Below are positions 49,299 to 55,706 of a stretch of 64,000 nt of DNA, one piece after another. Below the pieces are notes generated by a model that was not told the origin of the DNA, did not search any database, and saw only the letters and a program-made list of their open reading frames with translations. The DNA comes from Pseudo-nitzschia pungens (lineage: Eukaryota > Bacillariophyta > Bacillariophyceae > Bacillariales > Bacillariaceae): positions 2,391,001 through 2,455,000 of the forward strand of contig CM074758.1 of assembly GCA_037355855.1 (NCBI GenBank). The letters run 5' to 3'. How positions within the stretch are numbered: the first letter of the stretch is position 1; each line of letters begins with the position of its first letter. The translations under genes and the position numbers were made by a program.

Positions 49299-51915
49299 AT
49301 GAGGTCGGACAAACGAAGGAGATTCAGCAACCTTCTGCAAGCTGTTCGAATTGAATCCATATCTACAACTCCAACTCCAACTCTGTCTAGGAAGAGACGA
49401 GCTGCGACATCCGCTGCTGCGAGAAAAACGATAACACAATCGAGCTTGATAGGAATGATCCAAATTATGGTCATCGCACTGGCGTTGCCATCATTCGTTT
49501 CGAAACGAATCCATTTCGCAAAGGGATTGGTAACGACGCAGTCGACACGAATCGGTAGAACATCCAAATTCTTGCAGATGGCTGTTGACTCGCGGGAACT
49601 TCGATTTTTTAGTAGTAGCAGCAAGAACAATAGCAACAATGTACTCGGGGATTATGTCAACCAGGAATGGATGGTAGCAACGGCGACTTCGGGAAGAACT
49701 TCACAGGAGAAAAGTGTTTTGGCGCTTGCGGGAACAGGATTTGACGATGTTGTGAGCATGCAAACCCAGTTCAACAGCAACGAGGACGGCAATTTCAATC
49801 TAGAGAAAATGGATAGCAATGGCAACAAGAATGGGAAAAATTCAGATGTTGAACCTGCTGTCACCGCGAAGTCGGAAGAAGAACTACCCCCTTTCTATTT
49901 CCAACACAAGATTAATCCACCTAAAAGAGGATACGGGCCTTACATCAATCTTTCTCCCGAGGAACGAGAACTATTCAGGTTGCTACGCAAGGCCAAAGAT
50001 GATGGGAAAATTACCACAACGCTTCGAGTTGCTGGCGGATGGGTGCGTGACAAGCTCTTGGCCACACCCGAGTTCAGTCGGTCTGGTCCAGACCGTGTCA
50101 AACGACCCACAAGACGAACTCCCCAAAGATTGACCTCGAAGTACAAAGCACCATCGTCGCTATCGGTTTCGTCCTCGTCGTTAACAACAAGCGTACCTTC
50201 GGCTGGCCGTCAGGGATCGAAGGTCATTGGAGGTGCAAAATCCAAAAAGAATGGCATGAAGAACGATCCATCCTTACTCCGGTTTCAACAGCAGGCCCCC
50301 GTGGACATTGATATAGCGCTCGACGACATGCTAGGACGGGAATTCGCCGAACTTCTCAACAAATACCTAACCGAAATGGGCGAGAAAACCCATGGCGTTG
50401 GCGTCGTTCTGAAGAACCCCGAAAAAAGCAAGCATCTTGAAACTGCCACCATGAAGGTAGGGACGTTTTGGATTGATTTTGTCAACCTGCGAGCCGAAGA
50501 GTACACCGAAGACAGTCGCATACCCGATTTGATGAGGATTGGAACCCCGGCGGAAGACTGCGTTTCGAAGAGACCTTACAATCAACAGTCTTTTTTACAA
50601 TGTAAACAACGGACAAGTTGAGGATTGGACCGGACGAGGTTTCAACGACCTCAGGCGTTGCGTCATCGCAACCCCCCTCGCTCCCCTCACGACGCTCCTT
50701 GACGACCCCCTCCGCACGCTTCGGTCGGTGCGTTTCGCCGCACGGCTACATTTTACCATGGATGGGTCTCTGAAGGAGGCAGCCATGGACGACCGAGTCC
50801 GCAAGGCACTGGCTGAGAAGGTCTCGCGAGAAAGAATCGGATGCGAAGTTGACTTAATGTTACGATCGCCCGATCCGGTGGGAGCAATGCGCCTCTTGAT
50901 CAATCTAAAACTTGCCAAAACCGTCTTTCCCATTGAAAAATTCGTTACCAATGGTGGCGAACACCGGGGTGCCGAGAAGACGGACTTGTTGGAAAAAGGT
51001 TTGCGTCTGCTTTCTGTCACTTACGATCAACTAGAAGAAAGCAAAATGTATACACCAGTGTGGTGTGACAAATCCTATCGGGGTTCGTACACGACCCATG
51101 GTGTTGAGGATATTGCTCTCGTCGACGATGGTGACGCCCTCCGATACATGTGGTACGCAGCTTTTCTCAAACCTTTTTACGACAACTCGGGAGCATCAGA
51201 ATCGAAGAAGAAGAAGACCAGAAAGTTGAATCGCTCTGTAGTCTCCAAACTTTTGGTCGACGAATTAAAACGACCCACTCGAGAAGCAGAAGCCGTCGAA
51301 AAGATTATGAAGGGTGCCAACGGCTTCAAAAAATTGATGAATAGTGGCAGTGACTATTCGGCGATGTCTGTACTGCTAAGCGACATAAGAATTTGCAGCG
51401 AACAGAGCATCAGCGGTAGCAAGGACGGTGCGAAAATGATATGTTCTATGAATGGCAAGCAAGTATTTACCGCAACAGAGAACGACCCTGTCTGGCAGCA
51501 TGCGATGGAGTTCCGTCTGTCCTGTTCAAAGGTAATTCGAAAAGTTGGACCATTATGGAGAGCTGCTCTATTCCTTGCTATGTCGGAGCATATCACTGAG
51601 GCGCTAGAGGGTGATCCAGAGTTTGTGATCGAAGGTGATTTCGTGGATGAATCGCAGGAAGATTTGAGACAAAGAGAAATCGAACGGTACGATAGTTTTG
51701 CCACGGCAATGCAGCGAATAGGTCTGGTTGGGATCTGGGGTCAAAAGCCACTGTTGGATGGGGGACAGGTAAAGAAAGTATTGTCCAACGTGCCCCACGG
51801 ACCTGTTTTTCGTGACATCATGGAAGAACAGGAGAAATGGTCCACCCTACACCCCTGTGCCAGTGCTGACATTCTAGCTAGGCATCTAGCAAAGACTTTT
51901 CCAGATTACTTATGA
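49299..51915 (+). CDS. CCA tRNA nucleotidyltransferase, one apparent +1 frameshift
   Basis: Without introns, the 2617-bp span has remainder 1; with one base skipped at 50559 it gives about 871 aa. The enzyme adds CCA to tRNA 3' ends. LRVAGGWVRDKLL and DIDIAL form the metal-binding nucleotidyltransferase motif. MRIGTPAED then AFRRDLTINSLFYN is the family's motif B/C, and the extra T falls inside it. EDWTGRGFNDL and DDPLRTLRSVRFAARL follow, with the template region ERIGCEVDLML. The N-terminus has a basic and hydrophobic leader (IMVIALALPSFV). A downstream ATG (MAVDSREL) at about residue 93 could give a cytosolic form. A ~70-residue Ser/Lys insertion separates motif A halves. Confidence 0.85.
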
Positions 51916-55328: not shown

Positions 55329-55335
55329 AAAAAAA
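55329..55335 (-). terminator. T7 RNA polymerase III terminator of the permuted tRNA
   Basis: Seven consecutive T on the minus strand, ten bases after the last base of the tRNA 5' half. A T-run is the standard Pol III stop. Its place after the 5' half, not after the 3' half, fits a permuted gene. Confidence 0.75.
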
Positions 55336-55345
55336 CTCCCCTATC

Positions 55346-55425
55346 ATAAGACCCCCACTCTGACCACTGAGTTACACGTGCTTTAACTTGCACGAGACGG
55401 GGTTTGAACCCGCGACCAAGGGCTT
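55346..55425 (-). tRNA. circularly permuted tRNA gene, probable tRNA-Ile(UAU)
   Basis: In transcription order the 3' half comes first (55425-55389), then a spacer, then the 5' half (55381-55346). The 3' half has AAGCCCT (loop end and anticodon stem), variable loop TGGTC, T arm GCGGG-TTCAAAC-CCCGT, acceptor strand CTCGTGC and discriminator A. The 5' half has acceptor strand GCACGTG, TA, D arm ACTC-AGTGGTCA-GAGT, then G and GGGGT-CTTAT. Rejoined: acceptor stem six of seven pairs (T6-T67 mismatch), D stem 4/4, T stem with one G-T, anticodon stem five with two wobbles. The loop CTTATAA has anticodon UAU. G15-C48 and GG18-19 are present. The B box precedes the A box. The leader CTTCCTA can pair with the trailer TAGGGGAG. 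No normal-order partner exists for either half. Confidence 0.8.
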
Positions 55426-55706
55426 GCTTTAGGAAGTGTACTTATCGGGCAGAAATTTAGTTTATAAATGTCTTTAAACAAATCTCAGAGTTACAACAAA
55501 GTTTGAACGTCGTCGTGCGCTCATGGAGGATGATTGTGGTTGCACCAATAATTCAGCAGCCGAGGTAGGACGGAAATCAAGCGACGACGACAGGAACCAA
55601 AGTGTGAGAAGAGGAGACCCGAGTTGTAGTGACGACATCTCGAAACATAGCTCTGACCGCATTCACTGTCCTCAAGGGATACAATTGAAAGAGCACCAAT
55701 TTTGTC

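What the first reader, a model, noticed from the sequence alone, without database searches (positions are those of the whole stretch)
55329..55425. Circularly permuted tRNA-Ile(UAU) gene in a diatom
Seen: the T arm and 3' acceptor strand precede the 5' acceptor strand and D arm. The strands GCACGTG and CTCGTGC pair across an 8-nt spacer, and the B box lies upstream of the A box. A T7 stop follows the 5' half, and leader and trailer can pair. Known: such genes were described in Cyanidioschyzon, prasinophyte algae, a nucleomorph and an archaeon; I do not recall one from diatoms. Rejoining in the anticodon loop gives CTTATAA, the usual Ile-UAU loop.
Basis: partly seen in the sequence, partly recalled or inferred. 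Interest (0 to 1): 0.93.

Follow-up and report, generated by a model that had tools for sequence, protein, structure and literature searches.

The report
Permuted tRNA genes in a diatom
A marine diatom keeps some transfer-RNA genes, for isoleucine and for cysteine, with their two halves in swapped order, so the RNA most likely has to be cut and rejoined through a circle before it can work; this rearrangement was known from a few other algae and one archaeon.

Summary
On the minus strand at 55345-55424 the 3' half of a tRNA-Ile(UAU) precedes its 5' half, with a 7-nt spacer. ARAGORN and Rfam (at its thresholds) find nothing in the window, but the rejoined halves are called tRNA-Ile(tat); ten random 64-kb sequences gave no such locus. 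The genome, probably a Pseudo-nitzschia, holds a second permuted Ile(UAU) copy: the mature sequences differ at 2 of 73 positions, one compensatory pair, 3:70. Searching the genome with Rfam's YrlA revealed seven permuted tRNA-Cys(GCA) genes; a pattern search added one degenerate copy. No ordinary nuclear gene for either tRNA was found. In each of nine intact genes the leader can pair with anticodon-loop positions 32-35 in the register of a bulge-helix-bulge splice site (31 of 36 pairs; 0 of 20,000 shuffles as good), and T5-T7 follows. Expression was not tested. The papers searched listed no diatom case.

The parts
55389..55424 (-). 3' half of tRNA-Ile(UAU): A38, 3' anticodon strand, variable loop, T arm (B box), 3' acceptor strand, discriminator A73; lies first in the transcript
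   Evidence: R3 match 55346-55424, 61.7 bits
55382..55388 (-). 7-nt spacer (AGTTAAA) joining the 3' and 5' ends of the mature tRNA; expected to be cut out by tRNase Z and RNase P (inferred)
   Evidence: unlike the 9-nt spacer of the second copy (CACACCCAT)
55345..55381 (-). 5' half of tRNA-Ile(UAU): 5' acceptor strand, D arm (A box), 5' anticodon strand, C32 to U36 and G37 (G37 only if the joint is at 37/38)
55427..55430 (-). Leader tetramer AAAG (i-6 to i-3) that can pair with C32-U33-U34 (3 of 4 positions) as the central helix of a bulge-helix-bulge motif
   Evidence: 31 of 36 pairs over nine genes at this register against 8-20 at 26 other shifts
55431..55436 (-). Leader CTTCCT, complementary (one bulge, G-U allowed) to trailer AGGGGAG at 55336-55342
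   Evidence: fold of the strand; the second copy has an unrelated but also complementary leader and trailer
55336..55344 (-). Trailer (ATAGGGGAG) between G37 and the T run
55329..55335 (-). T7 run, RNA polymerase III terminator-like
   Evidence: runs of 5-7 T in 9 of 9 permuted genes
55463..55467 (-). TATA-like TTATA starting 43 nt before the 3' half

Best explanation
The locus is a working circularly permuted tRNA-Ile(UAU) gene of the nuclear genome of a pennate diatom, one of nine intact permuted genes found (two Ile(UAU), seven Cys(GCA)). Shown in sequence: half order, cloverleaf after rejoining, compensatory change, splice-site-like pairing, T run, and no ordinary gene found for either tRNA. 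Inferred: RNA polymerase III reads leader, 3' half, spacer, 5' half and trailer. It starts from an upstream TATA-like element, or in three cases possibly by read-through from an ordinary tRNA gene 20-29 nt upstream. The leader folds back on the anticodon loop and makes a bulge-helix-bulge motif. The tRNA splicing endonuclease cuts at 37/38, a ligase joins the ends into a circle, RNase P and tRNase Z remove the spacer, and CCA is added.
For: Cloverleaf and chance control. The second Ile copy differs at 2 of 73 mature positions, both in pair 3:70 (A-U to U-A), while spacer, leader and trailer are unrelated in sequence. Seven permuted Cys(GCA) genes on five contigs score 65.0-70.3 bits with model R3, which contains no Cys tRNA. 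No ordinary nuclear Cys or Ile(UAU) gene: joined queries return only the halves at permuted loci, and patterns with up to 3 mismatches return no other match with the right anticodon in a tRNA-like context. Leader pairing with positions 32-35: 31 of 36; 24 of 28 after collapsing near-duplicate leaders; 0 of 20,000 shuffles as good in either test. T runs in 9 of 9, none of four or more T inside halves or spacers. TATA-like element near -42 in 4 of 9 permuted genes against 3 of 45 ordinary ones at -42 to -38. A splicing endonuclease domain is encoded (PF01974, 57 bits, cut-off 27), and an ordinary elongator Met gene has a 25-nt intron, placed by ARAGORN at 37/38, whose 3' end (GCA before A38) matches the Ile leaders. 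The pathway is as reviewed in PMC3978253 (sections 5, 6 and 8).
Against: No RNA data. U6-U67 is unpaired in both Ile copies. The 37/38 joint gives Ile G37, whereas yeast tRNA carries t6A37 and tRNA-Ile(UAU) of C. merolae may do so (PMC9602550, passages). No ligase was found: RtcB gave no match; the T4-type ligase search was uninformative, since nothing rang in its controls either. R3 also gives 52.6 bits to one pair of adjacent ordinary tRNAs and 45-57 bits to phage modules, so the score alone does not prove a permuted gene. A T4 lies between the ordinary Gly gene and the second Ile copy, which speaks somewhat against read-through there. Four of nine genes have neither strict TATA-like match nor any other promoter shown.
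Confidence: 0.91

Rival explanations
1. It is a dead remnant: two tandem ordinary tRNA genes lost their outer halves and left a 3' half next to a 5' half, without function.
For: Such a deletion would make exactly this layout; one clearly degenerate permuted Cys copy exists (C11:2342873). tRNA-Ile(AAU), present as an ordinary gene, can in principle also read AUA by inosine (general knowledge), so Ile(UAU) may be dispensable.
Against: Compensatory 3:70 change, 71 of 73 identical mature positions against unrelated flanks, leader pairing kept across different leaders, and a parallel Cys family without any ordinary gene found.
Confidence: 0.05
2. It is a Y RNA-like (YrlA) noncoding RNA, which also has T arm, acceptor-like stem and D arm in this order, and is not turned into a tRNA.
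For: YrlA is the only Rfam family that matches the two Ile loci up to E = 1: 28.0 and 27.2 bits; the Cys genes score 31.7-39.3 bits with it.
Against: All are far below the gathering score of 69. The anticodon loops are conserved and encode Ile and Cys, the flanking stems are not conserved, and the only nuclear Cys tRNA genes found are these.
Confidence: 0.02
3. The permuted Ile genes are real, but the cut lies at 36/37, giving the usual loop CTTATAA. This is a variant of the best explanation, not an alternative to it, so its confidence is counted apart.
For: A37 (t6A) is usual in Ile tRNAs (general knowledge; yeast and probably C. merolae in PMC9602550, passages); both copies have A just before A38. 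ARAGORN accepts both joints.
Against: At that register 2 of 4 central-helix pairs form in each copy, against 3 and 4 at 37/38. The Cys genes show their conserved edges at G37 and position 38, and the Met intron is placed at 37/38.
Confidence: 0.35

Closest known systems
Circularly permuted tRNA genes, type II (joint 37/38), of Ostreococcus, Micromonas and the Bigelowiella nucleomorph; also Cyanidioschyzon merolae
   Same: 3' half before 5' half, spacer (5-74 nt in those algae; 6-9 nt here), joint in the anticodon loop with a bulge-helix-bulge-like motif; T run and TATA-like element as in C. merolae. tRNA-Cys(GCA) is permuted in three of the prasinophytes too (Table 1 of PMC3978253).
   Different: A diatom nuclear genome. 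Ile(UAU) is not among the 34 genes of that table. Here Cys is a family of seven intact copies, and three genes lie 20-29 nt behind an ordinary tRNA gene.
Permuted tRNA genes of Thermofilum pendens (archaeon)
   Same: Swapped halves, short spacer
   Different: Joint in the T loop (59/60) and CCA encoded there (PMC3978253)
Permuted tRNA genes of Auxenochlorella (green alga)
   Same: Also found because an ordinary tRNA scan gave an incomplete set (PMC12633428, passages)
   Different: Green alga; isotypes not given in the passages seen
Permuted tRNA-Ser genes of chlorarachniophyte nucleomorphs (B. natans, Amorphochlora amoebiformis)
   Same: Swapped halves in an alga with a secondary plastid (PMC4494063, passages)
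   Different: In the relict endosymbiont nucleus and Ser only; not found in two Lotharella species there
YrlA, bacterial Y RNA-like RNA (Rfam RF02553)
   Same: Order T arm, acceptor-like stem, D arm
   Different: Scores 27-39 bits against a gathering score of 69; no conserved anticodon in the family as I recall it

Membership tests
Circularly permuted tRNA gene | 3' half upstream of 5' half, halves joined by a spacer at the acceptor end | tested here: met
   (9 genes, spacers 6-9 nt)
Circularly permuted tRNA gene | Rejoined halves form a complete tRNA | tested here: met
   ARAGORN calls Ile(tat) or Cys(gca) in 9 of 9 joined genes and nothing in 9 of 9 unjoined ones; U6-U67 mismatch in both Ile copies and a 5:68 mismatch in one Cys copy (C11:320305)
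Circularly permuted tRNA gene | Bulge-helix-bulge motif at the joint | tested here: met
   3 or 4 of 4 central-helix pairs in each of 9 genes (G-U allowed); the outer helix was seen only in the two Ile genes
Circularly permuted tRNA gene | No terminator between the halves, T run after the 5' half | tested here: met
Circularly permuted tRNA gene | Circular RNA intermediate and mature charged tRNA | not testable with these tools
   No RNA data available
YrlA (RF02553) | Score at or above the Rfam gathering threshold (69 bits) | tested here: not met
   27.2-39.3 bits
Ordinary tRNA gene with or without intron | 5' half before 3' half in the transcript | tested here: not met
   ARAGORN calls no gene at the nine permuted loci as they stand

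The most novel reading that the evidence does not exclude
In this diatom the whole cytosolic supply of tRNA-Cys comes from permuted genes, so every cysteine codon of the nucleus depends on RNA circularisation, and the same route makes a tRNA-Ile(UAU) with G instead of A at position 37. Some permuted genes are co-transcribed behind ordinary tRNA genes, which would get round the inverted A and B boxes.
Probability: 0.3. Interest if true: 0.85.

Novelty: new member of a known kind. Interest (0 to 1): 0.74.

Why it matters
A 2014 review counted permuted tRNA genes in six unicellular algae and one archaeon (PMC3978253, abstract); since then further chlorarachniophyte nucleomorph and Auxenochlorella cases were reported (PMC4494063 and PMC12633428, passages). 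A set in a diatom nucleus widens their range to a large group of marine producers, and suggests that an essential tRNA, Cys, can depend on them as a multicopy gene family. Nine genes in one genome with variable leaders give a natural data set for how the splicing endonuclease recognises such precursors. Diatom tRNA annotations made with ordinary scanners may lack Cys and Ile(UAU) for this reason.

Tried and rejected
Canonical Ile(UAU) by A box plus CTTATA patterns: 5 places in each, 8 distinct, none with a D stem on reading the printed matches (fewer than the reversed-pattern controls). Permuted Ile pattern in viral contigs: 46 loci; 34 overlap one or two ordinary phage tRNA genes, and 12 carry a permuted-like phage module; none resembles the diatom gene in the printed stretch. 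Diatom-specific permuted patterns in genome contigs and viral contigs: 0 each. So no related diatom sequence was found and conservation across species is untested. RtcB: no match. T4-type RNA ligase family: uninformative. Model R1 (joined Ile) was built but never used, since the genome cannot be searched with it. Alignment A1 was replaced by A3 because four tRNAs with a 4-nt variable loop were misaligned; Gly, Gln, Asp and Glu were dropped, leaving 13 of 17. Model R2 contains the Ile genes, so R3 without them was built as the fair test. Of the 31 places, two 3-mismatch matches holding TGCA (C3:4402496, C5:4356248) lack conserved A-box letters and were not read further. The RF00005 search scored only 63 of 4671 candidates and the RF02553 search 46 of 2066, so neither is a full list, and more permuted genes may exist. 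Organellar tRNA-Cys and tRNA-Ile genes were not searched. In one search genes with identical upstream 40 nt, or too near a stretch end, were dropped before the count of 45.

Papers: PMC3978253 was read in outline and sections 4 (part 1 of 2), 5, 6 and 8, plus a word search. PMC8450103, PMC12633428, PMC4090602, PMC13353863, PMC4929541, PMC9602550, PMC11528492 and PMC4494063 were seen in passages only. All others were seen in listings only.

Full report
WHAT IS THERE. The minus strand of 55329-55467 reads, in order: TATA-like TTATA, leader ending in AAAGCA, 3' tRNA half (AGCCC to GTGCA), 7-nt spacer AGTTAAA, 5' tRNA half (GCACGTG to CTTATG), trailer, T7. ARAGORN, and Rfam at its thresholds, find no gene in the window. 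With the halves rejoined, ARAGORN calls tRNA-Ile(tat), with either possible joint.

CHANCE. Pieces around B-box-like motifs of the window were rotated and tested (30,800 pieces). One locus gives a junction-spanning tRNA, this one; ten first-order Markov sequences of the same size give none. Model R3, made only from 11 ordinary tRNAs of this genome artificially permuted, finds one match in the window up to E = 10: this locus, 61.7 bits, E 4.7e-16. As a caution, R3 gives 52.6 bits to the adjacent ordinary Ile(AAU) and Met genes of L068 and 45-57 bits to permuted modules in 12 phage contig stretches.

SECOND ILE COPY. A search of the 66.9-Mb genome returned one further copy, C1:997546-997635. Over the 73 mature positions it differs only at 3 (A to T) and 70 (T to A), a compensatory pair. 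Spacer (9 nt), leader and trailer are unrelated to those of the first copy, but leader and trailer pair with each other in both predicted folds. It lies 20 nt behind an ordinary tRNA-Gly(GCC) gene, with a T4 between them.

SEVEN CYS GENES. Because YrlA (RF02553) has the same permuted core, I searched the genome with it (46 of 2066 candidates scored, so a lower bound). Of 11 matches, none over the family's cut-off, seven are permuted tRNA-Cys(GCA) genes (C7, C12 twice, C10 twice, C1, C11), two are the Ile genes, and two (20.3 and 19.1 bits) overlap ordinary tRNA genes, which ARAGORN calls unassigned and Ser(aga) and which by eye look like tRNA-Tyr with an intron. The Cys genes score 65.0-70.3 bits with R3, and 7 of 7 are called tRNA-Cys(gca) when joined, 0 of 7 as they stand. 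Five of seven 3' halves are identical, and there are three versions of the 5' half. Two follow ordinary tRNA-Leu(CAA) genes by 25 and 29 nt. An eighth, degenerate copy lies at C11:2342873. In the C11:320305 copy one acceptor pair (5:68) is lost (read).

NO ORDINARY GENE. Joined Ile and Cys queries return only halves at the permuted loci: 4 and 14 matches. A 5'-half Cys pattern with up to 3 mismatches returns 31 places: the 7 permuted genes with none, the degenerate copy with 1, and 23 others, none a tRNA-Cys as far as the printed letters show. The Ile pattern returns 61 places, and only the two permuted genes have anticodon TAT. A gene more diverged than 3 mismatches, or missing from the assembly, would escape. 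tRNA-Cys(GCA) reads both Cys codons and has no substitute (general knowledge), so if the assembly is complete the permuted genes must work. This is an inference. Cys codons (25 TGT, 31 TGC) and ATA (31) are used in seven window ORFs.

SPLICE-SITE PAIRING. In the register of an intron at 37/38, leader bases i-6 to i-3 should pair with 32-35. They do so at 3 or 4 of 4 positions in each of nine genes: 31 of 36 in total, against 8-20 at the 26 other shifts tested. After collapsing near-duplicate leaders it is 24 of 28. In both tests 0 of 20,000 leader shuffles did as well. The leaders differ, so the pairing, not the sequence, is kept. An ordinary elongator Met gene has a 25-nt intron, which ARAGORN places at 37/38, ending in GCA before A38, like the Ile leaders. 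Against 37/38 stands that it puts G at 37 of tRNA-Ile(UAU), where yeast tRNA has t6A and C. merolae may have it (PMC9602550, passages). I leave this open and give 36/37 about one chance in three.

TRANSCRIPTION. Runs of 5-7 T follow in 9 of 9. A TTATA element starts 41-43 nt before the 3' half in 4 of 9 (a fifth has AATAAA at -42). Among 45 ordinary nuclear tRNA genes, 3 have a TTATA, TATAA or TATAT at -42 to -38 from position 1 and a fourth at -7. The comparison was chosen after seeing the data and the two reference points differ. Of the four permuted genes with neither element, three follow an ordinary tRNA gene closely and the fourth is a tandem copy 178 nt behind another, start to start. 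PMC3978253 (section 5) argues that inverted A and B boxes make an upstream TATA element important.

MACHINERY. A tRNA splicing endonuclease domain is encoded at C2:1561023 (57 bits, cut-off 27), with a weaker candidate below the cut-off at C3:1930714. RtcB gave no match; a T4-type ligase search could not decide.

ORGANISM. The named best matches of window proteins are diatoms: glycerol-3-phosphate dehydrogenase 81% to Pseudo-nitzschia australis; a WD40 protein 95% to an MMETSP transcript of unshown organism, 86% to a Psemu1 model, 75% to P. multistriata and to P. australis. Genus Pseudo-nitzschia is likely; the species is unknown.

LITERATURE. The 2014 review lists 34 permuted genes, none Ile and none from diatoms (PMC3978253, section 4 part 1; word search for diatom and five related terms 0). 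Searches for permuted tRNA with diatom and related words listed no diatom case; I saw 40 of 45 entries and the top 10 of 2,714. The five listed papers were checked in passages, as was an ochrophyte paper that names a permuted 5S rRNA, not a tRNA (PMC11528492). The library lacks most subscription papers, so this is not proof that none is in print. tRNA databases such as PlantRNA were not available here.

VERDICT. A real, very probably functional set of permuted tRNA genes in a diatom nucleus. The kind is known; the lineage, the Ile isotype and the multicopy Cys family are new as far as I could search.

Noticed in passing
L021, L022, L025, L027, L032, L035, L038, L045, L050, L051, L057, L058 (viral contigs; some are near-duplicates): Phage contigs, several with tRNA arrays, carry a permuted T arm - acceptor - D arm module (6-7 of 7 acceptor pairs; 45-57 bits with R3). 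In the 9 of 12 loci scanned no Rfam family reaches its threshold at the module. They could be Y RNA-like RNAs or permuted phage tRNAs.
   Followed up: partly
L071:4875-4952 (minus), C11:2342873: Degenerate eighth permuted tRNA-Cys copy with a damaged T arm, about 30 nt behind what looks like the remains of a tRNA 3' end, with a T7 run between.
   Followed up: partly
C5:5.86-5.98 Mb, C7:4.80-5.22 Mb, C2:7.12-7.16 Mb: Many repeated organelle-type tRNA copies, with a tmRNA call at C5 and C7, lie on long contigs, on C5 and C7 near the contig ends: organelle concatemers joined in assembly, or real insertions.
   Followed up: no
window 49299-51915 (+): A tRNA CCA-adding enzyme-like gene (PF01743, PF12627), split over two frames, lies 3.4 kb from the permuted tRNA; probably coincidence.
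   Followed up: no
L068:5990-6088 (minus): Ordinary elongator tRNA-Met gene with a 25-nt intron placed at 37/38, used here as a yardstick for the splice site.
   Followed up: yes
window 55346-55424 and L010: Both Ile(UAU) copies keep a U6-U67 mismatch in the acceptor stem although pair 3:70 is exchanged; I recall a similar mismatch in yeast tRNA-Ile(UAU), from no call.
   Followed up: no
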